Origin: a virus
IMG/VR virus record: IMGVR_UViG_3300025674_000062
Coordinates: 1 to 52,209 of that record
DNA length: 52,209 bases
Direction: 5' to 3' (one strand)
Both the position numbers and the translations under genes were made by a program. Shown piece by piece: positions 6,431 through 23,966 of this stretch; position 1 is the stretch's first letter; every line of letters starts with the position of its first letter. The notes beneath the pieces were generated by a model. That model had not been told where the DNA came from. It worked only from the letters and a program-made list of their open reading frames with translations, and did no database searches.

Positions 6431-6607
6431 ATGGAAGAAAAAAGAAAGATGTTGACCGACATCCTCGGTTCGTATTATCAAAAAGGTAATGAGCACTTGT
6501 ATCATTGTCCTTATTGTAAGCACCACAAGAAGAAAATGTCTGTAAACTTTGTAAAAAGGCTACTATTTACTTTTAGACATTTCATTTATCAGGAGACACA
6601 AAAATGA
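6431..6607 (+). pseudogene. Truncated second copy of the primase N-terminal zinc-finger region
   Basis: With its own promoter and a GGAGG RBS (6421-6425), this frame encodes 58 residues. The first 40 match the start of the primase at 7705: MLTDILGS against ILNDVLGS, YHCPYCKHHKKKMSVNF against YHCPFCNHHKKKLAINF. Similarity stops after VNF, before the second Cys pair of the zinc finger, and the remaining 18 residues are unrelated. The break falls just upstream of the ACTATTTA motif and RBS of the next gene, so a late-gene cassette appears to have replaced the rest of a primase copy. The stop overlaps the next ATG (ATGA). A 58-residue half-finger is unlikely to work as a primase. Confidence 0.75.
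6562..6571 (+). promoter_or_regulatory. ACTATTTACT motif at the primase-fragment junction
   Basis: The motif lies right after the point where primase similarity ends, 32 bases before ATG 6604. An AGGAG RBS at 6591-6595 follows it. Confidence 0.45.
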
Positions 6608-6879
6608 AAATTACAAACCAACAATTAAGAAGAATTATCAAAGAAGAACTTCAAGCAACTCTACGAGAGAGCAAGGATGAAGCACTTAAAATGATTATGG
6701 ATTTAGAAAAAGGCGACGACTTGGGTATGATCCTCGATTTCAGCGATCTCAAAGAGTTGGTTTCAAATGGAGATAAAGAAGGGGCTCTTAAAGAAATCGG
6801 CTATATGTATGAAGGCACAGAAACAGCAGGCCACGATAAACTCTTGAGACGATTAGAAAGATTAATTAAAAAAATGTAA
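6604..6879 (+). CDS. Small tagged protein (putative capsid cargo)
   Basis: A 91-residue protein whose first 22 residues are the recurring tag: MKITNQQLRRIIKEEL, then residues 17-22 ending L20-R-E22, followed by Ser23. L-R-E before Ser is an exact T4 prohead-protease-type site. The mature part (about 69 residues) is acidic and helical, with segments LKMIMDLEKGDD and LLRRLERLIKKM. I see no known domain. The ATG overlaps the TGA of the primase fragment, and its RBS AGGAG lies inside that fragment. The function after release is unknown; packaging in the head is inferred from the tag. Confidence 0.7.
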   Translation: MKITNQQLRRIIKEELQATLRESKDEALKMIMDLEKGDDLGMILDFSDLKELVSNGDKEGALKEIGYMYEGTETAGHDKLLRRLERLIKKM

Positions 6880-6947: not shown

Positions 6948-7121
6948 ATGTCTAATTTAAAAAATCTCAAAATCAACGAAGAGACCCACGAGAAGTTAAA
7001 GAACTATTGTAAAGAAAAGGGTTTGAAAGTTGGAAAGTTTGTTGAGAACTTGATTAACTCCAAGTTAGCGGAGGATAGTCAAAATGAACTCGGGAATTTA
7101 CAAAATAACAAACAAGATTAA
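6948..7121 (+). CDS. Small ribbon-helix-helix-like protein
   Basis: A 57-residue protein, MSNLKNLKINEETHEKLKNY followed by CKEKGLKVGKFVENLINSKL and a short polar tail. The pattern of a short strand (LKIN), a helix beginning EETHEKLKNYC, a turn with Gly, and a second helix (VGKFVENLINSKL) is that of ribbon-helix-helix DNA-binding proteins. It has a good RBS (AAGGAG) and overlaps the downstream homing endonuclease by 38 bases in another frame, so the two probably move or are regulated together. It may be a repressor or a nucleoid-type factor; that is inference. Confidence 0.6.
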   Translation: MSNLKNLKINEETHEKLKNYCKEKGLKVGKFVENLINSKLAEDSQNELGNLQNNKQD

Positions 7122-7647
7122 TGGAAAGTTTTATATTGGATCTTCAAATAATATTGAGAGAAGGTGGCGACACCACAAGTCAAACTTGAGAAGCGGAACT
7201 CATACCAATGTTCATCTTCAAAATTCTTACGACAAGCACGGCGAAGATCAATTTGAGTTTGTATTGATTGAGGAAGTAAGAAGAGCTAACTTACTTGTGA
7301 AAGAGCAAGAGTATCTTGACGAAGCCTTTGGTGGAGATCAAGAAATCTACAACATCAGTAGAGTAGCCGGCTCTCCTATGGCTGGATTAAATCATACAGA
7401 GGAAGTCAAGCAACTTCTATCTGAAAAACTGTCTGGTGAAAACCACCCACATTACGGAAAGCCCGTGAGTGAAGAGTGGCGAAGAAAGATAAGCAAATCA
7501 AATAAAAGATTTACGGACGAAGAAGAAGCGACATTTAGAAAAAGATGGTTAGCTGGAGAAACCAAAGGATCAATTGCAAAAGAAATTGGAGTCCATACAA
7601 CAACGATAACAAGGGCAATTGAAAGGGCGGAAAGATTTAATTACTAA
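7084..7647 (+). CDS. Free-standing GIY-YIG homing endonuclease (Seg-like)
   Basis: A 187-residue protein. The nuclease domain is N-terminal: GIY at residues 4-6, YIG at 17-19, the Arg cluster IERRWRHH at 24-31 with the likely catalytic Arg, and Glu in KEQEYLDEAFG for metal binding. A NUMOD3-like DNA-binding stretch follows (GENHPHYGKPVSEEWRRKIS), then a C-terminal helix-turn-helix (GSIAKEIGVHTTTITRAIE). Proteins of this type cut intergenic or coding targets in related phages lacking them and spread by repair. It sits between a broken and an intact primase start, as expected if its cut-and-repair activity rearranged this locus. RBS AGCGGAGG. Confidence 0.9.
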   Translation: MNSGIYKITNKINGKFYIGSSNNIERRWRHHKSNLRSGTHTNVHLQNSYDKHGEDQFEFVLIEEVRRANLLVKEQEYLDEAFGGDQEIYNISRVAGSPMAGLNHTEEVKQLLSEKLSGENHPHYGKPVSEEWRRKISKSNKRFTDEEEATFRKRWLAGETKGSIAKEIGVHTTTITRAIERAERFNY

Positions 7648-8677: not shown

Positions 8678-8971
8678 ATGAAATTAACAAACGCACAACT
8701 AAAACAAATCATCAAAGAAGAACTAAGCAAAGTTCTTAATGAACAAGATGGTGATTTGGAACAACTAGAAACAAGTCTTAAAGGCATGGGCTTTAATGTT
8801 GTAAATAACAGAACATCTCTAATGACTGATAATATTGAGATTGAATCAACTCCAGAGGGATTCAATATAATAGACCTTGATTATCCTGATCAGTCTAGAG
8901 AAATCAGCAAGTCTGTCGAAAAAGCTATAGAAGACATAAAAGACATAGTTAGACACAGAGGTGCTAACTAA
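8678..8971 (+). CDS. Small tagged protein (putative capsid cargo)
   Basis: A 97-residue protein with the tag MKLTNAQLKQIIKEEL, ending L20-N-E22 before Gln23. The remainder (LEQLETSLKGMGFNVVNNRT, then alternating polar and hydrophobic segments including NIEIESTPEGFNIIDLDYPD) looks like a small alpha/beta fold with no known family. It stands alone between the primase and the recombination gene and has its own ACTATTTATT motif and RBS, while its neighbours use sigma70-type promoters. This suggests late expression of an inserted cargo gene within an early or middle region. Confidence 0.7.
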   Translation: MKLTNAQLKQIIKEELSKVLNEQDGDLEQLETSLKGMGFNVVNNRTSLMTDNIEIESTPEGFNIIDLDYPDQSREISKSVEKAIEDIKDIVRHRGAN

Positions 8972-12539: not shown

Positions 12540-12875
12540 ATGTTCTGGGTGAATAAAGCAAGAAGATGGATAATAGCTCATAAGAACTGGTTGGTTCTTA
12601 TGGGTCTGTTTGTTTTATCTTATGTTCTCGGAAAGAAAGCTAATAAGAACTATCTTGAAATGGCCAAGCTTGCCAAAGATCAATACAAAAAAGAAAACGA
12701 AGAAATTCAACGCCTACAAAAAGAAAAGCAAGTCAGAGATAAAAAAGCAGATGAAAAATCCAAAGCAGTTAAAGCTGCCCTTGAAGCTGAAAAACAAAGA
12801 AAGTTAGATGAATTACAAAATAAAAACGCTAATATCGACGATGTTTTTCAAGACATTGGAATAAAGAAAAAATGA
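12540..12875 (+). CDS. Spanin-like protein: membrane anchor plus coiled coil
   Basis: A 111-residue protein starting MFWVNKARRWIIAHKNW. One membrane segment (about residues 19-36, LVLMGLFVLSYVLGKK) is followed by a long Lys/Glu coiled coil to about residue 95. This is the shape of an inner-membrane spanin (Rz type) or of other phage membrane coiled-coil proteins. An ATG at 12519 is in frame, but it lies inside the upstream gene and lacks a good RBS. ATG 12540 has GGAG eight bases upstream and follows the previous stop by two bases. The stop overlaps the next gene (ATGA). Confidence 0.55.
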   Translation: MFWVNKARRWIIAHKNWLVLMGLFVLSYVLGKKANKNYLEMAKLAKDQYKKENEEIQRLQKEKQVRDKKADEKSKAVKAALEAEKQRKLDELQNKNANIDDVFQDIGIKKK

Positions 12876-13312
12876 AAATAACCAACAAACAATTGAAACA
12901 AATTATTAAAGAAGAATTATCTTACATTCTTAATGAACAAGAAGATAGAATTCAAAAACTTGCTCGTTATATACGAAATGGAGATACAGAAGATTTAATT
13001 CACGGTTTGGAATTAATTGAGGCTGCTGGGTTGGAACCATGGCACAGAGCTGATCTTTATCAGGCAATAAAGCAACATGTAGACCCGATAAAAGAAGAGA
13101 TGAAATCACTAAGTATGAAAATTTATGAGTTACGAGAACAGCTTTGGGGCCGGATACAGACACAACGACCACCTAATCATCTTGAACAGAAATTAAATGA
13201 AGCAGAACAAAAATATGAAGAATTAAAATTTGAACTGAGACAAATTGAACCAGTTCTTTCTAAATTTAAAACTAATTCTATGGTTTATGTTGATGATCCT
13301 ACAATGGAGTAA
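12872..13312 (+). CDS. Tagged helical protein (putative capsid cargo)
   Basis: A 146-residue protein with the tag MKITNKQLKQIIKEEL, ending L20-N-E22 before Gln23. A second possible cleavage site is L48-I-E50 before Ala51. The body is largely helical with a coiled-coil-like middle (residues ~75-135, PIKEEMKSLSMKIYELREQL and EQKYEELKFELRQ). No known domain was recognised. Its ATG overlaps the TGA of the spanin-like gene and it is followed after 3 bases by another envelope-type gene, so a head-cargo gene sits within a lysis-type cluster. Confidence 0.65.
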   Translation: MKITNKQLKQIIKEELSYILNEQEDRIQKLARYIRNGDTEDLIHGLELIEAAGLEPWHRADLYQAIKQHVDPIKEEMKSLSMKIYELREQLWGRIQTQRPPNHLEQKLNEAEQKYEELKFELRQIEPVLSKFKTNSMVYVDDPTME

Positions 13313-13315
13313 CAA

Positions 13316-13711
13316 ATGATTTTACTATTACTTTCAACACTTGCTTGGGGACAAGTTCCCGAGTACACACAAATAGAGCAAGGTGAGCCTGCTCCATTCT
13401 CCGGTCGCCTCTTCAATGAGGAGGCATCGCAACTTATTGCTGATCAATTAGCAAATTGTGTTGAGAAGTGTCAAATTGAAATGGACTATCAGCTTGGCTT
13501 AGCTCTCGCAAGGAAAGAAGAAGAATTAACACAAATAAAATCTCAACACAAGTATGATAAAGAAATTCTTCAACTTAAAGTAGAAGCACAGCAAGAAAGA
13601 ATTCAAGAACTTGAAAAGCTAAAAACACCACCAAAAAGACAACTTTGGTTCACGTTAGGACTAATTAGTGGAGTAGGAATTACAATTTCAATAGCAAAGG
13701 CGGTAAAATAA
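13316..13711 (+). CDS. Exported coiled-coil protein with C-terminal membrane anchor (spanin-like)
   Basis: A 131-residue protein. The N-terminus MILLLLSTLAWG is a short signal-peptide-like segment, with likely cleavage before QVPEYTQ. The middle (residues ~60-110) is a charged coiled coil and the C-terminus has a hydrophobic segment, LWFTLGLISGVGITISIA, ending in Lys. I recall similar proteins in marine T4-like phages without an assigned role. The signal peptide, periplasmic coiled coil and membrane anchor near a second coiled-coil membrane protein fit a spanin-type disruptor of the outer membrane. No lipobox Cys is seen. It ends TAATG with the next gene. Confidence 0.55.
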   Translation: MILLLLSTLAWGQVPEYTQIEQGEPAPFSGRLFNEEASQLIADQLANCVEKCQIEMDYQLGLALARKEEELTQIKSQHKYDKEILQLKVEAQQERIQELEKLKTPPKRQLWFTLGLISGVGITISIAKAVK

Positions 13712-14847
13712 TGAAAATAACAAAACAAGATATCAAAAGAATGATCAAGGAAGAACTAAAAAAAGTTCTCTTAGAAGATATAAGTCCAGTACCAAATATG
13801 AATCCAAGAGACGCTCTTCAGTTTATGAGAGAAGAACTAGAAGGCAAAACGCTTATCTTTTGGGATTTAGAAACAATCTCGGGAATGACAAAAGAAAAGT
13901 ACTTACCACCAGAGTTACAAGAAAGAACTTACTCTGGACAAATAACACAAATTGGTGCGACAGCATATGAAATCGAATCTTTAGATGATGACCCAGCACA
14001 AGCTTTAGTTGGAGAACCATTTGAAAGAAAAGTGATCCTCACCCCTGATACTTTAATGCAACAAGCTTTTGAGAGAGAGCAATTGAAAGACCCTGAATCT
14101 TCTTTTAGCAGATTAGCAGCCCGTCAGCCAGATGCTCCAATAACAGTTGATAAAACACTTCAATTTACACACCATAGTGATCTAGATCTTGAAGACGTTG
14201 ATGAAGCAGATGCTTTGATTGAATATTTTAATTGGCTTGATTCTTTTGATAATAAGGTTTTGTTAGGTCACAACATAATCACATTTGATAATCAATTTCT
14301 TAAGAAAAGAGTTGAGTACTTAGCTGAGACTTTAGAAGACAAACAAAAAGTTGCTCAATTAGTCTCTGGTTACGATTCGTTTTATGATAATGACTTTTTC
14401 GACACTTTAAAGTTTACACGTTATTTGTTTAAGCAAGTTATCACTATGCTTAACTCATATGAAGACCCAATAGCAGCTCAATTCTTTGATCCTGAAACAA
14501 ATCAGAAAAAAATTCAACAAGGAATTACACAAAAATTTACAAGTAAATTATCAAGACTTATGCAAGTTTATGCAAAAGACGCAATTCAATTACATACTGC
14601 TGCTGATGATACGAGACAGTTGGTTAATGTTTTCTTTAAAATGTATCAAACAATAAAAACAGCACAACAAAATCCAGATTATGCTCGTCAGATGGCTTCA
14701 CCGCATCACACTAATCCTATTAAAGCTGCTAAGCAATTGTTCCCAGACGATTTAGAAAAACAAAAATCTGTAAGGGATTTGGCACCAGATGAGATTAGCA
14801 GAATGTTAAAAAGAAAAATTAAATTTCCAGAAGACTGGGAGGTTTAA
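13711..14847 (+). CDS. Tagged DnaQ-type 3'-5' exonuclease (DexA-like), putative capsid cargo
   Basis: A 378-residue protein. The tag is MKITKQDIKRMIKEEL, ending L20-L-E22 before Asp23. From about residue 47 comes an RNase T/DnaQ fold: Exo I IFWDLETISG (D52, E54), Exo II LLGHNIITFDNQFL near 183-197, FFDTLKFTRYLF, and Exo III HTAADDTRQL near 295 giving the HxxxxD motif. It resembles the T4 DexA exonuclease in type but has the extra N-terminal leader. If the leader directs packaging, the nuclease would enter the host with the DNA. Expression is coupled to the upstream gene by TAATG overlap. Confidence 0.85.
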   Translation: MKITKQDIKRMIKEELKKVLLEDISPVPNMNPRDALQFMREELEGKTLIFWDLETISGMTKEKYLPPELQERTYSGQITQIGATAYEIESLDDDPAQALVGEPFERKVILTPDTLMQQAFEREQLKDPESSFSRLAARQPDAPITVDKTLQFTHHSDLDLEDVDEADALIEYFNWLDSFDNKVLLGHNIITFDNQFLKKRVEYLAETLEDKQKVAQLVSGYDSFYDNDFFDTLKFTRYLFKQVITMLNSYEDPIAAQFFDPETNQKKIQQGITQKFTSKLSRLMQVYAKDAIQLHTAADDTRQLVNVFFKMYQTIKTAQQNPDYARQMASPHHTNPIKAAKQLFPDDLEKQKSVRDLAPDEISRMLKRKIKFPEDWEV

Positions 14848-15233
14848 TGAAAAATAAAGATCCAAATTATATTGTAAAAGTAGAAAAAGCTATTGCAGAA
14901 AAATACGGCCAAGAAGCCATCGACAATCCAAAGAGGCACTGGACCGACGAAAAAGAGAAGGAATATGTAAAACAACTAAAAGATCTTTACAAAGATTCAA
15001 AACAAAAAGATGACTTCCAAGTTGAAGTTGGTGGCGTTTTTATTGCAGAGAAACTAATTACCAAAGAATCTAAACGCTCTTGCCCTACTTGTAATACTTA
15101 TTCATTCAAATCAAACGATGACGTTTATATGGCAAAATTTGATTGTTGTGAAAAATGTTATATCCAATGGGTTGAGGGACGAGAAGAACGATGGCTAAAA
15201 GGATGGAGACCCCAAAATGAAAATAACAAATGA
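14847..15233 (+). CDS. Conserved phage zinc-ribbon protein
   Basis: A 128-residue protein. Residues ~1-60 are Lys/Glu-rich helices; the C-terminal part has a zinc-ribbon pattern CPTC (about 78-81) and CCEKC (about 99-103), followed by the distinctive YIQWVEGREERWLKGWRP. I recall this ending from other marine T4-like phages, where it lies among head genes without an assigned function. A nucleic-acid or protein-binding role is a guess from the ribbon. Its start overlaps the stop of the exonuclease gene by one base, and its end overlaps the next gene by 17 bases. Confidence 0.65.
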   Translation: MKNKDPNYIVKVEKAIAEKYGQEAIDNPKRHWTDEKEKEYVKQLKDLYKDSKQKDDFQVEVGGVFIAEKLITKESKRSCPTCNTYSFKSNDDVYMAKFDCCEKCYIQWVEGREERWLKGWRPQNENNK

Positions 15234-15846
15234 ACAATTAAGACAAATTATCAAAGAAGAGCTTGAAGCTGTATTAAATGAAGCTTATGCAGGACAGGGA
15301 GAAACCACAGGTTTATCTGGTCGAACAGGTTATGCAAAAAGCAAACAGCAAAAAGATCTAGAACGAGATGCTAAAGCTAGACAATCTCAACATTATGATA
15401 ACCAAGAAGCTGGTGAGAGAGCTTATAGACAACAACAAGCAGACAAAAAACAAGCAGCAAAAGACAGAGCTGCCCCTGGGAAAAGAAGTGCTAACATACG
15501 CGAAATGTCAAAGTTTGTTGTTAAAGATACCATAAGTGACTTGATAGGATTGATGGATAGTGATTTTGGACAACATAGAGGCGATAGAACCGGTTTTTTT
15601 AAAGCTTTAAAAAAGATTAGCGGAATGACAGAAAAAGATTTTATAAATAAAGTAGAAGAAACAACCGAGGCTTATATGACAAAAAAGAATATTACACAAT
15701 TACAAGACAGAGATATGAAAAAAATTGCAAACGATTCGGCATTTGAAATTAAACAATTAATTAAAGATGCTAAAAAGAAAGCAAGGAATAGAACATTTAT
15801 GCAAAAAGCTGGTAGTTTTTTAACAGGTAAAGGCTTCAAACAATAA
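15217..15846 (+). CDS. Tagged basic/polar protein (putative capsid cargo)
   Basis: A 209-residue protein. The tag MKITNEQLRQIIKEEL ends L20-N-E22 before Ala23, the strongest match to the prohead-protease consensus in the series. Residues 23-90 are low-complexity, rich in Gln, Lys, Ala, Arg and Gly, and probably disordered. Residues ~95-209 are helical (FVVKDTISDLIGLMDSDF, then a Lys-rich C-terminus FLTGKGFKQ). No enzymatic motif is visible. The gene starts 17 bases inside the preceding one, using a GGAG at 15205-15208 as RBS. Net positive charge would suit a DNA-associated internal protein; that is inference. Confidence 0.65.
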   Translation: MKITNEQLRQIIKEELEAVLNEAYAGQGETTGLSGRTGYAKSKQQKDLERDAKARQSQHYDNQEAGERAYRQQQADKKQAAKDRAAPGKRSANIREMSKFVVKDTISDLIGLMDSDFGQHRGDRTGFFKALKKISGMTEKDFINKVEETTEAYMTKKNITQLQDRDMKKIANDSAFEIKQLIKDAKKKARNRTFMQKAGSFLTGKGFKQ

Positions 15847-15858
15847 AAGGAGAATCTT

Positions 15859-16413
15859 ATGAGCAACACAACATTAGAAATTATACAAGGACTTTCACAA
15901 GCAGCAGCTAATGCTTACGATGGCGCACATGATGAAAAATATTCTTACGACGGTCAAGCTCGCACAATGGGTTTGAAAAGAGAAGAAGGTTGTCCAATTA
16001 TGGACAAAAGAGTTATGGACGGCTTCAAAGTTCGCTTCTATGGTGACTCAATGATTCTTTCTTACCAAGCCGAGGTTATGCTTAAAGAAGTTTATGGTGG
16101 GAGATTTGAACAAGATATTGAATCAATGATGAATGATATCAAGAAATTCTTGCAAAAAGAATACAGAGCAGTTACAGGAAAGTCAGTGACCCTTACAGCT
16201 AAAGGTGAGCCTAATATCCTTGTTCAATCAACATCAAGAATTCGTAATTGGGTTGAGGCACAACAACACTTCAAGATTGGCGGAATTGAATCCTTGCCTA
16301 TTCTTGAGCCTTCAATAGACCAAACAAGAGACGTAACAAGAAAGTTCTTAGAACAATTTTCGGACAAACGCCCACAAAACGATACACGCAAAAAAGGAGC
16401 AAATCAAAAATGA
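15859..16413 (+). CDS. Conserved phage protein upstream of terminase
   Basis: A 184-residue protein beginning MSNTTLEIIQGLSQAAANAY and containing REEGCPIMDKRVMDGFKVRF, an alternating strand pattern, and SRIRNWVEAQQHFKIGG. I recognise this as a conserved protein of marine T4-like phages near terminase and portal, but know no function. It has no tag, membrane segment or catalytic motif. The C-terminus is basic and polar. RBS AAGGAG is before ATG 15859, and its stop overlaps the next tagged gene (ATGA). Confidence 0.65.
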   Translation: MSNTTLEIIQGLSQAAANAYDGAHDEKYSYDGQARTMGLKREEGCPIMDKRVMDGFKVRFYGDSMILSYQAEVMLKEVYGGRFEQDIESMMNDIKKFLQKEYRAVTGKSVTLTAKGEPNILVQSTSRIRNWVEAQQHFKIGGIESLPILEPSIDQTRDVTRKFLEQFSDKRPQNDTRKKGANQK

Positions 16414-16730
16414 AAATCACAAATGAACAATTAAAGCAAATTATTAAAGAAGAATTAGAAACAGTCCTCAATGAAGAAAGACAAGCTTTTGTTTTTTTTG
16501 ATCCATCTGGAAACATAGAACTTCAAAATGTTAGCATTGACGATAGTCAAAATTGGAATATTCCTGTTCATTATTTTGATCAACAAAGCTACAGGACTCT
16601 ATTGTCATTGAAAGGGAAACCATTAGGCCAAGAAGGTGCTCAATATTTCTTCAACATGATAAAAAGACTTAATGCTAAACCTGATAAATTGAACGTTGAA
16701 AAATTAGCAAGAGCAAAGGTCACCAGCTAG
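16410..16730 (+). CDS. Small tagged protein (putative capsid cargo)
   Basis: A 106-residue protein with the tag MKITNEQLKQIIKEEL, ending L20-N-E22 before Glu23. The mature part begins near RQAFVFFDPSGNIELQNVSI and looks like a compact alpha/beta domain, with a helix around YRTLLSLKGKPLGQEGAQYF. No known family was recognised. It is inserted directly between the conserved 15859 gene (ATGA overlap) and the terminase, 12 bases downstream. Confidence 0.65.
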   Translation: MKITNEQLKQIIKEELETVLNEERQAFVFFDPSGNIELQNVSIDDSQNWNIPVHYFDQQSYRTLLSLKGKPLGQEGAQYFFNMIKRLNAKPDKLNVEKLARAKVTS

Positions 16731-16742
16731 TAAGAAGGGATA

Positions 16743-18329
16743 ATGTCTCTAAAACTTTCAAAGCAAGAAATAATAAAAGAAATCCTTAAGTGTGGAAAAG
16801 ATCCTCTCTACTTTATTAATAACTATTGTAGGATCTCTCACCCACTTAAGGGTTTAATTCCTTTTAATACCTATCCTTATCAAGATGAATTGGTTAAGGA
16901 TTTTAACGACTATCGCTTTACCGTCATTCTCAAAGCAAGACAGTTAGGTATTTCCACAATCTCTGCTGCTTATGCTGTATGGTTTATGTTGTTTCATAAA
17001 GAAAAGAACATCTTGGTAATGGCAACCAAGTTCAATACAGCAGCCAACTTGGTAAAGAAAGTAAAAATGGTAATGAAAAACATTCCTCCGTGGATGGCAA
17101 TTGCCGACATTACGATAGATAACAGAACCTCGTTCGAACTTTCAAATGGCTCCACAATCAAAGCTGTTGGAACATCAGCAGACGCTGGTCGTTCGGAAGC
17201 CCTATCTTTGCTTATTATAGACGAGGCAGCGCACGTTGAAGGACTTGAAGAGCTTTGGGCAGGTCTTTACCCCACTCTATCAACAGGGGGTCGTTGTATC
17301 GCATTATCAACGCCTATGGGGGTTGGAAACTGGTTTCACAGAACTTATGTGGATGCCGAGAATGGAGATAATGAATTTCACCCTGTATCCTTACCTTGGG
17401 ATGTTCACCCTGAACGTGATCAGGCATGGTTCGCAAAAGAAACCAAGAACATGTCGAGAAGACAAATAGCACAGGAGCTTGAATGTAATTTCAACACATC
17501 TGGTGAAACTGTTATTCATCCGGATGACATTGCTTGGCTATTGGAACAACAACAAGAACCTGAGTACAAAACAGGATGGGATAGAAACTTGTGGATTTGG
17601 GAAAAGTATCAAGAAGGTGTTCCTTATCTTATGGTAGCAGACGTTGCTCGAGGAGACGGAGCTGACTCTTCTGTATTTCACATTCTGAGAACGGATACAA
17701 TGGATGTAGTTGCTGAATACCAAGGAAAACCAACGATGGATCATTTTGCTCAGATTCTAAATGATGCTGGGAAAGAATATGGCAACTGCCTTATAGTCAT
17801 CGAGAATGTTGGCATTGGTATTGCTGCTTGTGAGAAAGTAAGAGATCTTGGATATCCAAACCTTTATTATTCAATCAAATCAACACATGAATATGTTGAT
17901 TCTCTTGAAGGAGAATATAATGACAGAGCAGTTATAGGATTCACAACATCTGTCAAAACAAGGCCTCTGATTGTTGCCAAGCTCGAAGAATATGTAAGAA
18001 ATAAGCTGGTAAGACCAAAGTCAAGTCGGTTGTTTCACGAAGTAAAAACATTTATTTGGAACAACGGAAAACCACAAGCAATGCGATCTTATCATGACGA
18101 CTTGATAATGGCTCTCGCAATTGCGTGTTGGGTTAGAGATACGGCTTTGGAAGTCTCGGAGAAAGATAAGTTGTATCAAGAAGCAATGATTTCTTCTATC
18201 AAATCATCACAAACCACAATGAACACAGCTATCAAAGGAATGAGAGGATACACTGGGACAAAGACACAAGAGTCACTAGAAGAGTTTCAGAAGACATACA
18301 AAGACTTTGCTTGGATTTTCAGAGGATAG
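16743..18329 (+). CDS. Terminase large subunit (gp17-like)
   Basis: A 528-residue DNA-packaging motor. ATPase domain: Walker A variant ARQLGIS at residues 65-71 (the T4-type ARQLGxS loop), Walker B LLIIDEAAH at 156-164 with catalytic Glu, and coupling motif near LSTPMG (188-193). RNase H-fold nuclease domain: ADVARGDGADSS at 299-310 with the first catalytic Asp, further acidic residues near VIENVGIG, and a final YHDDLIMALAIA. It cuts the concatemer and pumps DNA into the prohead through the portal encoded next. No separate small subunit was recognised upstream. Confidence 0.95.
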   Translation: MSLKLSKQEIIKEILKCGKDPLYFINNYCRISHPLKGLIPFNTYPYQDELVKDFNDYRFTVILKARQLGISTISAAYAVWFMLFHKEKNILVMATKFNTAANLVKKVKMVMKNIPPWMAIADITIDNRTSFELSNGSTIKAVGTSADAGRSEALSLLIIDEAAHVEGLEELWAGLYPTLSTGGRCIALSTPMGVGNWFHRTYVDAENGDNEFHPVSLPWDVHPERDQAWFAKETKNMSRRQIAQELECNFNTSGETVIHPDDIAWLLEQQQEPEYKTGWDRNLWIWEKYQEGVPYLMVADVARGDGADSSVFHILRTDTMDVVAEYQGKPTMDHFAQILNDAGKEYGNCLIVIENVGIGIAACEKVRDLGYPNLYYSIKSTHEYVDSLEGEYNDRAVIGFTTSVKTRPLIVAKLEEYVRNKLVRPKSSRLFHEVKTFIWNNGKPQAMRSYHDDLIMALAIACWVRDTALEVSEKDKLYQEAMISSIKSSQTTMNTAIKGMRGYTGTKTQESLEEFQKTYKDFAWIFRG

Positions 18330-18388: not shown

Positions 18389-20356
18389 ATGCCCAAATAT
18401 AAAAAGTCGCCTTATAATCCTCAGTCGGATCTATTTAAGGCTCTTACAAAATTGTTTTCTGGTCCGATTACCCAGAGAAGAACACAAACAGGTCGTCAAC
18501 TAAGAAGACGACAATTAGATAATTATGCAACAAAGTTTCAATCAGCTACTGGTGCTCAATTTAAGAAGTGGGAATACAATCCCATAAACTCTGTTACTCT
18601 TAACATGATCTCAAACAGAAACAGAGCAGAGCGCTATGTTGATTTTGATGAAATGGAATATATGCCAGAGATCGCATCTTCATTAGATATTTATGCAGAT
18701 GAGATGACAACTCACACAGCACTTCGTCCGATGCTTAACATTAAATGTGCGAACGAAGAAATAAAACACATCCTCCATAATTTATATCACAATGTTCTTA
18801 ACATTGAACACAACCTATTTGGATGGGCAAGAACAATGTGCAAGTACGGTGATTTCTTTCTTTATCTTGATATTGATGAAGATATGGGAATTCGATCTGC
18901 TATTGGTCTTCCAACCAGAGAGATCGAGCGTCTTGAGGGCGAGGACCAAAGTAATCCTAATTACGTTCAATACCAGTGGAACACAGCTGGACTAACTCTG
19001 GAGAATTGGCAAGTTGCTCACTTCAGAATCCTTGGTAATGATAAGCATGCTCCTTATGGAACGTCGGTCCTCGAACCTTGTAGACGCATTCACCGTCAAC
19101 TTATTCTTTTAGAAGATGCTATGATGGCTTATAGAATTGTACGTGCTCCTGAACGTCGGTTGTTCAAAATTGACGTTGGTGGTATTCCACCGCAAGAAGT
19201 TGAACAGTACATGCAAAAAGTTATGTCACAATTAAAAAGACACTCAGTTGTAGATCCAAATACAGGTCGTGTCGATCTACGTTATAACCCTTTATCAATT
19301 GAAGAAGATTATTATATTCCAATACGTGGAGGACAATCTTCAACAGATATCACAAGTCTTCCCGGTGCAGCTTATAATGGCGGTATTGATGATGTTAAGT
19401 ATCTCAGAGATAAATTGTTTGCTGCTTTGAAGATACCTCAGTCTTATTTGACCATGGGCGAAGGTGCTTCTGAAGACAAAACCACATTAGCTCAAAAAGA
19501 TATTAGATTTGCAAGAACAATACAAAGATTACAAAGAGTTGCAATTGCTGAATTAGAAAAGATTGGAATAATACATCTCTACACGATGGGATACAGAAAT
19601 GATGATCTATTAGCTTTCACACTTCAACTAAACAATCCGTCTAAGATTGCTGAGTTGCAAGAACTTGAACATTGGGACAAAAAGTTTTCTGTTGCTGGAA
19701 ATGCAACAGAAGGATACTTCTCAAAACGCTGGATTGCGGAACACCTTTTCGGAATGTCTGAGGATGAGTTTCTTCGTAACCAAAGAGAAATGTTCTTTGA
19801 TAAAAAATTCGCAGCAAAACTTGAAGCTGCTACTGCTGGTGGAGAAGCTAGTGAAGACGCCGGTGGTGGTGGCGGACTTTCTGGTGGACTTGGCGACCTC
19901 GGTGGTGGAGGTGACCTTGGTGGAGGTGAAGATTTAGGAGGTGACCTTGGCGGTGACCTTGGCGGTGGAGACACCGGTGGAGGAGATGTCGGCGGCGACG
20001 AAGGGGGTGATACCGATCTGCTCGCCGAACCCTCTGCGAAACGTGATGATTCACCTTCATATGTTGATATTCCAAGAAAGGTTGGATTTAACAATCCCGA
20101 CACAAGACGAGGTCCATACAAAAGGCACCAATCTTCTTATGATAAAGGCGGTATGAAAAAGTCTATGCTCGGCTCCACAGGAATTGAGGCAGCAAGATCT
20201 ACAGGTCGTAACATTTATAAAGGCTATGTTGGAAATGAATTTTCTGTTTCCCAAGCAGCTGGTGGCTATTTAGAAGAAGAACAAAAACTAGAAACAGTAT
20301 CTCGCGAAGTCGAGATGCTTATTGAATCATTAAACAAAAAGGAATCAATAGAATGA
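18389..20356 (+). CDS. Portal protein (gp20-like)
   Basis: A 655-residue dodecameric portal through which DNA is packaged. Typical gp20 features are AERYVDFDEMEYMPEIASSLDIYADE near residues 70-95, FKIDVGGIPPQEVEQYMQKVM, and LFAALKIPQSYLTMGEGASEDKTTLAQKDIRFARTI. The C-terminal part (about residues 490-550) is an unusual low-complexity stretch of Gly and Asp repeats (GGDLGGG units), followed by a normal polar tail with YVDIPRK and a helical end. This linker is absent in T4 as far as I know. The stop overlaps a tagged gene (ATGA). Confidence 0.92.
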   Translation: MPKYKKSPYNPQSDLFKALTKLFSGPITQRRTQTGRQLRRRQLDNYATKFQSATGAQFKKWEYNPINSVTLNMISNRNRAERYVDFDEMEYMPEIASSLDIYADEMTTHTALRPMLNIKCANEEIKHILHNLYHNVLNIEHNLFGWARTMCKYGDFFLYLDIDEDMGIRSAIGLPTREIERLEGEDQSNPNYVQYQWNTAGLTLENWQVAHFRILGNDKHAPYGTSVLEPCRRIHRQLILLEDAMMAYRIVRAPERRLFKIDVGGIPPQEVEQYMQKVMSQLKRHSVVDPNTGRVDLRYNPLSIEEDYYIPIRGGQSSTDITSLPGAAYNGGIDDVKYLRDKLFAALKIPQSYLTMGEGASEDKTTLAQKDIRFARTIQRLQRVAIAELEKIGIIHLYTMGYRNDDLLAFTLQLNNPSKIAELQELEHWDKKFSVAGNATEGYFSKRWIAEHLFGMSEDEFLRNQREMFFDKKFAAKLEAATAGGEASEDAGGGGGLSGGLGDLGGGGDLGGGEDLGGDLGGDLGGGDTGGGDVGGDEGGDTDLLAEPSAKRDDSPSYVDIPRKVGFNNPDTRRGPYKRHQSSYDKGGMKKSMLGSTGIEAARSTGRNIYKGYVGNEFSVSQAAGGYLEEEQKLETVSREVEMLIESLNKKESIE

Positions 20357-20718
20357 AAATAACAAACAAACAACTAAAACAAATAATAAAAGAAGAACTT
20401 GATAATACACTTCAAGAAATGCAAGTGGGCTTAGGGCTTCCTCATGAATTTACAGATGAGGAATTAATCCAACACGCATCTGAATTTCTGAATACAGTTT
20501 ATGTTCCAGAAAGAACCGGAAGGATTTGGAGCAACGAGGATAATATAAAAGCTTTAGGATTATATAAGATTTTAGGAAACAGGGTGAGAGAAGCAGGTGT
20601 TTTCAATAATGATCCGACTGATGCAGATAAAGATGCGGCAAAAAGAAAACAGTGGGAACTTAGACGGTTACGTAGCGAACTACAGAATATTATATCCCGA
20701 GAGTTTTTAGATATTTAA
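20353..20718 (+). CDS. Tagged protein (putative capsid cargo)
   Basis: A 121-residue protein with the tag MKITNKQLKQIIKEEL, ending L20-Q-E22 before Met23. The mature part is helical and charged (FTDEELIQHASEFLNTVYVP, then ALGLYKILGNRVREAGVFNN and a final WELRRLRSELQNIISREF). I do not recognise a family. It lies exactly between the portal gene and the conserved 20732 gene. In T4 the corresponding position holds the small prohead core genes 67 and 68, so a core or internal protein is a reasonable inference. Confidence 0.65.
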   Translation: MKITNKQLKQIIKEELDNTLQEMQVGLGLPHEFTDEELIQHASEFLNTVYVPERTGRIWSNEDNIKALGLYKILGNRVREAGVFNNDPTDADKDAAKRKQWELRRLRSELQNIISREFLDI

Positions 20719-22532: not shown

Positions 22533-22578
22533 AAAATGGATGCTACAACCAGTTCGTCGTTGCTGTTCAGGCAGCTGA
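22525..22578 (+). CDS. Possible 17-residue micro-protein
   Basis: The ORF encodes MNKKWMLQPVRRCCSGS. It overlaps the end of the 22218 gene and has an ideal RBS (GGAG at 22515-22518, six bases before the ATG). A GC-rich hairpin follows. It could be a real peptide, a leader peptide linked to the hairpin, or chance. Confidence 0.3.
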   Translation: MNKKWMLQPVRRCCSGS

Positions 22579-22583
22579 CTCAA

Positions 22584-22602
22584 GCGGGTTGCGCCCGCAT
22601 TT
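22584..22602 (+). terminator. GC-rich hairpin followed by TTTTA before the kinase gene
   Basis: GCGGGT/GCCCGC stem with a short loop, then ATTTTA. It may be a weak terminator or attenuator, since genes continue directly after it. Confidence 0.4.
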
Positions 22603-22615
22603 TATGGAGAAAGAA

Positions 22616-23335
22616 ATGAAAATAACAAATAAACAATTAAGACAAATCATAAAGGAAGAGCTCAATCGTGTTTTAAGAGAAAACATGGGTTTAAAAATGT
22701 TTGTCCTCGTTGGTCCACCATCTGTTGGTAAATCAACTTGGATTAATAAAACTTTTGGACAAAATAGACCTTACGTCATCAATAGAGATGATATAGTTGA
22801 AGATGTTGCCTCAGAATATGGTTGGACATATGACGACATGTTTGCAACACCACCACAGGACGCAGAAATTGGCAGTGTTGACCAAAAATACGGTGAAGTA
22901 CAGAAACCACCAAGTTGGATGACTTGGGCAAAATCAGTGTTTTCAACTGTTATGGAAGCAAATGGGAAAGTTCATAACTTGTTTACACAGAGAGTAGCAG
23001 GTGCCGTAGATAGTGGTCAAGACATTGTAGTTGATATGACTAATATGAACAAGAGAGCCAGATCTGGTGCTTTAAAAGCAATTGAAGGTTCAGAAGATCA
23101 ATATGAAAAAATTGCTGTTGTTTTTGAATCTAAAGGAGCTGAAGAATTTATTAAAGCCGTTGCTCAAAAAAGAGCTGAGGCTGCTGCAAGAATGGGTAAA
23201 TCTAAAACAATCCCTCCTGCTGTTTTTGATAGAATGTTTGCATCATTTGAAGATGTAAGTATGGATGAAGGGTTTGATGAAATAGTGAGTGTGGATAATA
23301 GACAATTACTACAACAACTAGCTAGTGAGATGTAA
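22616..23335 (+). CDS. Tagged polynucleotide-kinase-like P-loop protein, putative capsid cargo
   Basis: A 239-residue protein. The tag MKITNKQLRQIIKEEL ends L20-R-E22 before Asn23. The body is a P-loop kinase: Walker A GPPSVGKS at 33-40, INRDD at 55-59 (the Asp position used as general base in T4 polynucleotide kinase), VVDMTNMNKRAR at 138-149 and IPPAVFDRMFASFE near 199-212, all in the order seen in the T4 PseT kinase domain. No C-terminal phosphatase domain is present. It might phosphorylate 5'-OH ends of RNA or DNA. ATG 22616 is chosen over the upstream ATG at 22589 because it begins the tag and has GGAG six bases before it. Confidence 0.8.
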   Translation: MKITNKQLRQIIKEELNRVLRENMGLKMFVLVGPPSVGKSTWINKTFGQNRPYVINRDDIVEDVASEYGWTYDDMFATPPQDAEIGSVDQKYGEVQKPPSWMTWAKSVFSTVMEANGKVHNLFTQRVAGAVDSGQDIVVDMTNMNKRARSGALKAIEGSEDQYEKIAVVFESKGAEEFIKAVAQKRAEAAARMGKSKTIPPAVFDRMFASFEDVSMDEGFDEIVSVDNRQLLQQLASEM

Positions 23336-23336
23336 A

Positions 23337-23966
23337 ATGAGTAAACAATTATTAACAGAATTTTTTGAACTATGTCCCGATGGACGTTGCCTTGATCGTC
23401 TGAGCGAATCTCAAAAACGTGAGGTAATCCAAGAGGGGGCTGTTTATCTTGTTGGTCGTATTCAAACTGCTGACAAAAAGAACGGAAACGGACGTGTTTA
23501 TCCCGAGAAAGTTCTAAAGAAAGAAATACAAAATTATCAAAAAATCATAAGAGATAACAGAGCCACAGGCGAACTAGATCATCCGGATGATTCTGTTATA
23601 AACTTAAAGAATGTTTCACACATGATTACCGAATGTTGGTGGGAAGGAAAAGATGTCATGGGCAAGATCAAAGTTCTTGACACACCATCTGGTCGTATTC
23701 TCAAAGATCTAATCAATGCTGGTGTAAAACTTGGTATTTCTTCTCGAGGACTTGGTTCTGTTAAAGAATCAATGGGTAACACAGTAGTTGAAGAAGACTT
23801 CCAATTAATTTGTTTTGACATTGTAGCAGAACCTTCAACACCAGAAGCTTATGTTGCTCCTCGTGGATCTACATCTGGAATAAACAGAGGCGCAGTTAAA
23901 TTTAAAATAGCTGAGGGTAAAGAAAACAATATTGACCAACTATTTAATAAGATCTTGAGGGACTAA
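23337..23966 (+). CDS. Prohead core protease (gp21-like)
   Basis: A 209-residue serine protease that matures the prohead by cutting scaffold, capsid and internal proteins after (L/I)-x-E. Candidate catalytic residues are His82 (GELDHPDD) and Ser135/Ser136 (LGISSRGLGS), in the order of the T4 gp21/herpesvirus assemblin fold. FDIVAEPSTPEAYV is the usual conserved C-terminal block. The protein itself contains L22-S-E24 before Ser, I31-Q-E33 before Gly and I191-A-E193 before Gly, consistent with self-cleavage. ATG 23337 follows the previous stop by one base. The end overlaps the next start (TAATG). Confidence 0.92.
   Translation: MSKQLLTEFFELCPDGRCLDRLSESQKREVIQEGAVYLVGRIQTADKKNGNGRVYPEKVLKKEIQNYQKIIRDNRATGELDHPDDSVINLKNVSHMITECWWEGKDVMGKIKVLDTPSGRILKDLINAGVKLGISSRGLGSVKESMGNTVVEEDFQLICFDIVAEPSTPEAYVAPRGSTSGINRGAVKFKIAEGKENNIDQLFNKILRD
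23939..23948 (+). promoter_or_regulatory. ACTATTTAAT motif inside the end of the protease gene
   Basis: It ends 17 bases before ATG 23966, the same spacing as several intergenic copies. It is coding here, so chance is possible. Confidence 0.25.

What the first reader, a model, noticed from the sequence alone, without database searches (positions are those of the whole stretch)
22616..23335. A polynucleotide-kinase-like enzyme carrying the capsid-targeting tag
The order GPPSVGKS, INRDD, VVDMTNxNxR and IPPxVFxxM follows the kinase half of T4 PseT, but the phosphatase half is missing and the 22-residue leader is added. T4 uses PseT with RNA ligase to undo host anticodon-nuclease damage. A virion-delivered kinase could act before any phage gene is expressed. 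This anti-defence reading is inference.
Basis: partly seen in the sequence, partly recalled or inferred. Interest (0 to 1): 0.75.

Follow-up and report, generated by a model that had tools for sequence, protein, structure and literature searches.

The report
Capsid-tagged RNA-end kinase in a phage
A T4-like phage gene makes an enzyme that probably repairs the 5' ends of broken RNA and carries a removable address label of the kind that sends proteins into the phage head, so it may be injected with the DNA and reverse host RNA damage before any phage gene is switched on.

Summary
ORF 22616-23335 is a 239-aa P-loop kinase with a 22-residue leader that seven other ORFs in the window share. All eight leaders end in LxE, the motif that T4-type prohead proteases cut after. 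Sequence profiles, structure and gene partners place the core with 5'-OH polynucleotide kinases: relatives are fused or adjacent to HAD phosphatases, CCA-adding enzymes, RNA ligases and 2H cyclic phosphodiesterases. In a sister phage (L010) the gene directly upstream encodes a 2H enzyme with the same leader, whose predicted fold is closest to CNPase. So it resembles a split Trl1/CNPase-type end-healing pair at least as much as T4 PseT.

The gene sits 1 nt before the prohead protease gene, downstream of a conserved hairpin element. Between that element and the protease, related phages carry no cargo, 2H, 2H+kinase, kinase, or other tagged proteins. This looks like an exchangeable virion-cargo site.

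Virion presence, cleavage, activity and any anti-defence role are inferred, not shown. No RNA ligase was found in the window or its closest relatives, which are fragments. The T4 residue Arg38 is not conserved. Verdict: new variant of a known kind; a virion-delivered RNA end-healing kinase is likely but unproven.

The parts
22616..23335 (+). Tagged polynucleotide-kinase-like gene, 239 aa
   Evidence: AAA_33 2e-13; phrog_505 polynucleotide kinase 2.4e-11; PDB profile hits are mostly PNKs
22616..22681 (+). 22-residue leader MKITNKQLRQIIKEELNRVLRE, predicted capsid-targeting propeptide; predicted cut after LRE
   Evidence: predicted as helix 5-22; T4 precedent PMC9026906
22712..22738 (+). P-loop GPPSVGKST (residues 33-41)
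   Evidence: invariant G33, P35, G38-K39-S40 in 20 relatives
22787..22789 (+). Asp58, equivalent of T4 PseT Asp35 (general base)
   Evidence: invariant
22844..22945 (+). Insert between the Asp58 helix and the next core helix (residues ~77-110, KYG and SPxWMTW-type motifs), absent from T4 PseT and from the short untagged relatives
   Evidence: alignments
23171..23212 (+). Lid region: Arg186 (T4 Arg126 by profile alignment) to Lys197-Thr-Ile
22533..22615 (+). Conserved structured intergenic element upstream of the cargo gene (GCGGGTTGCGCCCGC hairpin)
   Evidence: (MFE -23.4; flank 96.5% identical to L010)
23337..23966 (+). Prohead protease (gp21-type), start 1 nt after the kinase stop codon
   Evidence: phrog_207 head maturation protease 3.7e-59
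18389..20356 (+). Portal (gp20-type)
   Evidence: 42-44% to portals of cultured T4-like phages
16743..18329 (+). Large terminase (gp17-type)
   Evidence: sequence; same order terminase-portal-core-protease in relatives and in cultured phage immuto
37542..39293 (+). Major capsid protein; its propeptide carries the same kind of site (ELLRE59-S)
   Evidence: phrog_138 5.8e-68
20353..20718 (+). Another leader-tagged ORF (121 aa)
13711..14847 (+). Leader-tagged protein with RNase_T/DnaQ-type exonuclease domain (378 aa)
   Evidence: PF00929 4.7e-6
15217..15846 (+). Leader-tagged ORF (209 aa)
16410..16730 (+). Leader-tagged ORF (106 aa)
12872..13312 (+). Leader-tagged ORF (146 aa)
8678..8971 (+). Leader-tagged ORF (97 aa)
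6604..6879 (+). Leader-tagged ORF (91 aa)

Best explanation
The gene encodes a polynucleotide 5'-OH kinase of an RNA end-healing subfamily, loaded into the phage head through a cleavable N-terminal capsid-targeting propeptide. Proposed steps: (1) it is made late, from the head-gene block, just before the prohead protease; (2) the leader helix docks on the prohead core; (3) the prohead protease cuts after LRE22 and frees the kinase inside the capsid; (4) the kinase enters the next host with the DNA; (5) it phosphorylates 5'-OH ends of host-cleaved RNA, most likely tRNA, while 2H/HAD partners (tagged, in related phages) clear the 2',3'-cyclic or 3' phosphate and a ligase seals. Supported by sequence comparison: kinase family, leader, cleavage motif, placement, partners. 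Inferred: late expression, packaging, cleavage, delivery, substrate and the anti-defence use.
For: Kinase identity: profile search of solved structures returns Clostridium Pnkp, Pnkp1, T4 Pnk, mammalian PNKP and a tRNA ligase; Foldseek best hits are PNKP and Cth Pnk; catalytic K/S/D/R positions are conserved. Pathway: fused HAD_SAK phosphatase in L103/L110/L117 and neighbouring tagged HAD_SAK in L027; fused CCA-adding enzyme in L012 (PF01743 1.1e-35), L111, L112; RNA ligase next to it in L115 and phages RHph_I1_18, RpAliso, Cr30; tagged 2H enzyme overlapping it by ATGA in L010 and L013, with predicted fold closest to CNPase then fungal RNA kinase/CPD. At least seven larger kinase-bearing records also encode an RNA ligase. 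Tag: eight leaders in the window ending in LxE, 346 tagged ORFs elsewhere with the motif concentrated at residue 21/22, and a second tag type with the motif at one position in 28 of 33. Kinase relatives swap tag types or carry a C-terminal tag; T4 Alt is also processed C-terminally (PMC9026906). Placement: element-cargo-protease site with variable cargo.
Against: No virion proteome of this phage is known to me. No RNA ligase, RtcB or 2H partner was found in the window, though it is a fragment. T4 Arg38 is replaced by Val61, as non-Arg throughout the subfamily. Structure alone does not separate PNK from PSTK or zeta folds (Z 13.9, 14.1, 12.5). The leader could serve head assembly rather than delivery.
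Confidence: 0.6

Rival explanations
1. The kinase is packaged but acts on DNA: it restores 5'-phosphates at nicks or ends of the incoming phage genome, as mammalian PNKP does for DNA.
For: Mammalian PNKP (a DNA enzyme) is the top Foldseek hit; T4 Pnk acts on both DNA and RNA (established knowledge).
Against: Partners are RNA-specific: CCA-adding enzyme fusions, RNA ligases, 2H cyclic phosphodiesterases, and a putative tRNA-His guanylyltransferase in RHph_I1_18.
Confidence: 0.13
2. The leader is not for delivery: it is an assembly module that anchors the protein to the prohead core, and the kinase acts during or before assembly, or is discarded.
For: A core-like protein beside the protease (23966) begins with a similar helix MKKQELKKILKPLIKECIKEVIFE; most tagged cargo is small with no known domain.
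Against: LxE sits at the leader-cargo boundary across unrelated proteins; catalytic residues are kept under divergence down to about 40% identity; recognisable enzymes carry the tag.
Confidence: 0.15
3. It is a P-loop kinase of another substrate: zeta-toxin-like (UDP-sugar), seryl-tRNA(Sec) kinase-like, or a small-molecule kinase.
For: VIA-align Z for PSTK (14.1) and zeta (12.5) is close to PNK (13.9); weak PSTK profile hits in some relatives.
Against: No Zeta_toxin Pfam match for this protein up to E=1; profile hits in the PDB are mostly PNKs; RNA-repair fusions and neighbours.
Confidence: 0.08
4. The repeated leader is a DNA- or RNA-level signal (translation or regulatory element) that happens to be coding.
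For: All copies sit at gene starts.
Against: Synonymous codons vary to near codon-usage expectation while the peptide is kept; tag types are swapped, including to the C-terminus, on the same kinase.
Confidence: 0.03

Closest known systems
T4 PseT (Pnkp) tRNA-repair kinase-phosphatase
   Same: P-loop, Asp35, Thr-Asn, lid Arg and Lys positions; motif order
   Different: No HAD phosphatase domain; Arg38 replaced by Val; ~35-residue insert after the Asp58 helix; capsid-type leader; sits in the head-gene block, whereas T4 pseT lies near alc and rnlA
Fungal Trl1 / mammalian CNPase kinase plus 2H phosphodiesterase
   Same: Kinase next to a 2H enzyme with two HxT motifs in sister phages; predicted fold of that enzyme nearest CNPase and fungal RNA kinase/CPD; a P-loop/2H fusion beside an RNA ligase occurs in record G021
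   Different: Separate tagged proteins rather than one polypeptide; the 2H gene is missing from the window; no ligase domain
T4 internal proteins IPI-III and Alt with capsid-targeting sequences
   Same: Short N-terminal propeptide (T4 10-19 residues, here 22) ending in a Glu cleavage motif, shared by otherwise unrelated proteins; cognate prohead protease encoded next door; Alt shows C-terminal processing too (PMC9026906)
   Different: Different leader (not compared by alignment here); cargo is an RNA-repair-type enzyme; virion presence untested
Jumbo-phage RNA-repair repertoire (PNK, 2H, Swiss-army-knife HAD, CCA-adding, Thg1; PMC7824862)
   Same: Same enzyme set in the same kind of combinations
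   Different: The passages read treat these as part of the phage's counter-defence gene repertoire and do not mention packaging; here kinase, 2H and HAD enzymes carry capsid-type tags

Membership tests
Polynucleotide 5'-kinase (PNK) superfamily | Walker A P-loop GxxxxGK(S/T) | tested here: met
   G33-T41, invariant G33/P35/G38/K39/S40 in 20 relatives
Polynucleotide 5'-kinase (PNK) superfamily | General-base Asp (T4 Asp35) and lid Arg (T4 Arg126) | tested here: met
   Asp58 and Arg186, the latter by profile alignment
Polynucleotide 5'-kinase (PNK) superfamily | Acceptor-phosphate Arg (T4 Arg38) | tested here: not met
   Val61; non-Arg also in relatives adjacent to RNA ligase, so a subfamily trait
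Polynucleotide 5'-kinase (PNK) superfamily | Phosphorylates 5'-OH polynucleotide ends | not testable with these tools
   needs an enzyme assay
T4-type Pnkp (PseT) | C-terminal HAD 3'-phosphatase domain | tested here: not met
   239 aa, kinase only
Trl1/CNPase-type end-healing pair | 2H phosphodiesterase partner with two HxT motifs | tested here: inconclusive
   Adjacent in L010 and L013, absent from the window fragment
T4-type head-internal protein with capsid-targeting sequence | Short N-terminal propeptide shared by unrelated head cargo | tested here: met
   Eight ORFs in the window; 346 in viral contigs; that they are head cargo is inferred
T4-type head-internal protein with capsid-targeting sequence | Prohead-protease motif (hydrophobic-x-Glu) at the propeptide end | tested here: met
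   8 of 8 in the window at residue 22
T4-type head-internal protein with capsid-targeting sequence | Present and cleaved in the virion | not testable with these tools
   needs virion proteomics
Zeta toxin (PF06414) | Match to the Zeta_toxin profile | tested here: not met
   No PF06414 match up to E=1
Zeta toxin (PF06414) | Zeta-like fold | tested here: inconclusive
   Z 12.5 against 13.9 for PNK

The most novel reading that the evidence does not exclude
These phages carry an exchangeable virion-cargo site directly upstream of their prohead protease gene: a hairpin element, then zero to two cargo genes, each with a tag that the protease next door would remove. Recombination within the tag swaps cargo. 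The recurring recognisable cargo is an RNA end-healing kit (5'-OH kinase, two kinds of 2H phosphoesterase) injected with the DNA to mend host tRNA before phage transcription starts.
Probability: 0.5. Interest if true: 0.85.

Novelty: new variant of a known kind. Interest (0 to 1): 0.72.

Why it matters
Phage tRNA repair is known as a response made after infection starts. If the healing enzymes arrive inside the virion, a phage could counter RNA-cutting defences (anticodon nucleases such as PrrC and RloC, Cas13-type tRNA cleavage) at time zero. The leader would also give a simple sequence rule for listing head-packaged proteins, mostly of unknown function, across many uncultured T4-like phages. 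One T4-like phage in culture (Flavobacterium phage immuto) carries an ORF with a similar leader and could be tested directly.

Tried and rejected
Zeta-toxin reading: no profile match; fold similarity is real but not decisive. T4-type RNA ligase (PF09511), RNA_ligase (PF09414), RtcB (PF01139) and a phage RNA-ligase profile: none in the window or its closest relatives; the PF09511 search rang in no control, so it says little. In one search the 'CPD' labels at L045, L046, L057 and on the window kinase are leader cross-matches; near kinases only L010, L013 and L027 survive with the leader removed. Anti-CBASS Acb1 for the 2H partner: the fold match is weaker (Z 7.0) than CNPase (12.2), and PADLOC gave nothing. 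Pfam on 94 tagged ORFs named almost none, so cargo function cannot be generalised from it. The Fisher test for 'untagged kinases sit beside RNA ligases' was not significant as run (p 0.10; L039's annotated start would move it to untagged). No paper in the library contains the leader string. Rfam: no match in the window. One bacterial genome in 84,980 gave a weak relative, so no host could be read off.

Full report
What is there. The window is an IMG/VR virus record of 52,209 bases with a T4-like head and tail region: terminase (16743), portal (18389), prohead protease (23337), scaffold-like protein (36480), major capsid protein (37542). The finding is ORF 22616-23335, 239 aa. Its stop codon TAA is followed after 1 nt by the ATG of the prohead protease. 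There are no tRNA genes in the window.

The kinase. Pfam gives AAA_33 (2e-13) and PHROGs gives phrog_6931 (3.7e-14) and polynucleotide kinase phrog_505 (2.4e-11). A profile of 15 relatives finds in the PDB the Clostridium Pnkp kinase, Pnkp1, T4 Pnk, mammalian PNKP and a tRNA ligase, besides generic P-loop GTPases. The AlphaFold2 model (mean pLDDT 84) hits PNKP and Clostridium Pnk first in Foldseek; the second aligner ranks PSTK 14.1, Cth Pnk 13.9, PNKP 13.8, T4 Pnk 12.7 and zeta 12.5, so fold alone does not decide. Against T4 PseT read from the T4 record, Lys15, Ser16, Asp35, Thr86, Asn87, Lys129 and, in the profile alignment, Arg126 are conserved; Arg38 is Val61 here and non-Arg in all relatives aligned, including those beside RNA ligases. 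That Lys15, Ser16, Asp35, Arg38 and Arg126 are T4 Pnk active-site residues is from general knowledge; the primary papers were not held. The tagged subfamily has an insert of about 35 residues (KYG...SPxWMTW in most members) that T4 PseT and the short untagged relatives lack; it might supply acceptor contacts, which is a guess.

Partners. Of 103 viral relatives found, 80 were fetched. The same kinase is fused to a Swiss-army-knife-type HAD phosphatase (L103, L110, L117), to a CCA-adding/poly(A) polymerase head (L012 by Pfam at 1.1e-35; L111 and L112 by profile), and lies beside RNA ligases (L115, Rhizobium phage RHph_I1_18, Ruegeria phage RpAliso, Caulobacter phage Cr30). In L010, whose kinase is 92% identical to the window's, the preceding gene overlaps it by ATGA, carries the same leader, and matches fungal tRNA-ligase phosphodiesterase PF08302 at 22.9 bits (cut-off 23); L013 repeats the arrangement with another tag, with a weaker Pfam match. 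The two HxT motifs are invariant, and the model is nearest CNPase (Z 12.2), then the fungal RNA kinase/CPD structure (9.9), then Acb1 (7.0). Six kinase-bearing records have such a 2H gene. Record G021 has a P-loop/2H fusion next to an RNA ligase. RNA ligases occur in at least seven larger kinase-bearing records (two more below the curated cut-off), and those inspected have no recognisable tag. None was found in the window, L008, L009, L010 or L013; these are fragments, so absence is not shown.

The leader. Eight ORFs in the window share it; all end in LxE at residue 22; flanking DNA is unrelated and synonymous codons are nearly free. A second type (K-hydrophobic-ENWRxFLxE) has LxE at one position in 28 of 33 ORFs. 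Kinase relatives carry either type, other short amphipathic extensions, or a C-terminal version (LKESIRRxxRKELWNL) with no N-terminal one. This matches T4, where 10-19-residue propeptides target internal proteins into the head, are removed by gp21, whose cleavage follows a Glu in a short motif, and Alt is also cut C-terminally (PMC9026906; PMC5694885). The major capsid protein of the window has a matching site (ELLRE59-S), at the place of QIVSE-A in Flavobacterium phage immuto. immuto, a cultured phage, encodes an ORF starting MKKSQLRQIIKEALD.

The site. Upstream of the kinase lies a structured element of about 84 nt. The 176-nt flank that contains it is 96.5% identical to the flank of the L010 2H gene, though neighbouring genes are 83-87% identical, and unrelated (43%) to the DNA preceding the L010 kinase. 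The leader is equally close (79%) to both L010 leaders, and the kinase body is 87% identical. So the window kinase sits behind the 5' flank of the 2H gene, with the junction in or at the leader. The element recurs in other phages, followed by variable cargo and then the protease: no cargo (L184), 2H (L121), 2H+kinase (L010), kinase (window; L030 with the other tag), a second 2H-like protein plus a 193-aa protein (L126), ~108-aa proteins (L135, L175). The L126 protein has HVT...HVS motifs and a weak 2'-5' RNA ligase match; a homologue lies near the kinase in L032.

Interpretation. The best reading is a 5'-OH RNA kinase packaged in the head and injected. Placement supports this: a repair enzyme produced with head proteins would be of little use in the current cycle but useful at the start of the next (inference). 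Supported by sequence: kinase family, tag, motif, placement, partners. Inferred: late expression, packaging, cleavage, injection, RNA substrate, anti-defence use. Main gaps are the missing ligase, the missing Arg38 and the lack of any virion data.

Known and new. Phage RNA repair with these enzyme types is described for jumbo phages (PMC7824862), and capsid-targeting sequences are described for T4. Their combination, a tagged RNA end-healing kinase with a tagged 2H partner at a cargo site beside the protease gene, was not found in the papers searched. The search covered open-licence full texts only.

Noticed in passing
window 22533-22615: Structured intergenic element (GCGGGTTGCGCCCGC hairpin, MFE -23.4) more conserved than flanking genes, found before variable cargo or directly before the protease in several related loci.
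   Followed up: partly
window 13711-14847: Leader-tagged protein with an RNase_T/DnaQ-type exonuclease domain, another candidate virion-delivered nucleic-acid enzyme.
   Followed up: no
window 7084-7647: Probable GIY-YIG homing-type endonuclease, from sequence reading only.
   Followed up: no
L196:31-9572: Dense run of leader-tagged ORFs on one strand; similar runs in L187, L233, L210, L159, suggesting large virion-cargo islands of unknown function.
   Followed up: no
L027:12009-14030: Second, 673-aa tagged P-loop kinase (VNIFKFKKWLLEE leader) beside the family kinase and a tagged Swiss-army-knife HAD.
   Followed up: no
L111:3591-8474 and L112:1962-6872: Proteins of over 1,600 aa containing the kinase and CCA-adding domains, reminiscent of polyvalent proteins.
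   Followed up: no
L126:3435-3995 and L032:6984-7574: A second tagged 2H-type protein family (HVT...HVS/HIS), at the cargo site in L126 and near the kinase in L032.
   Followed up: partly
L014, L015, L017, L019 kinase C-termini: Same kinase with no N-terminal tag but a C-terminal amphipathic tail LKESIRRxxRKELWNL.
   Followed up: partly
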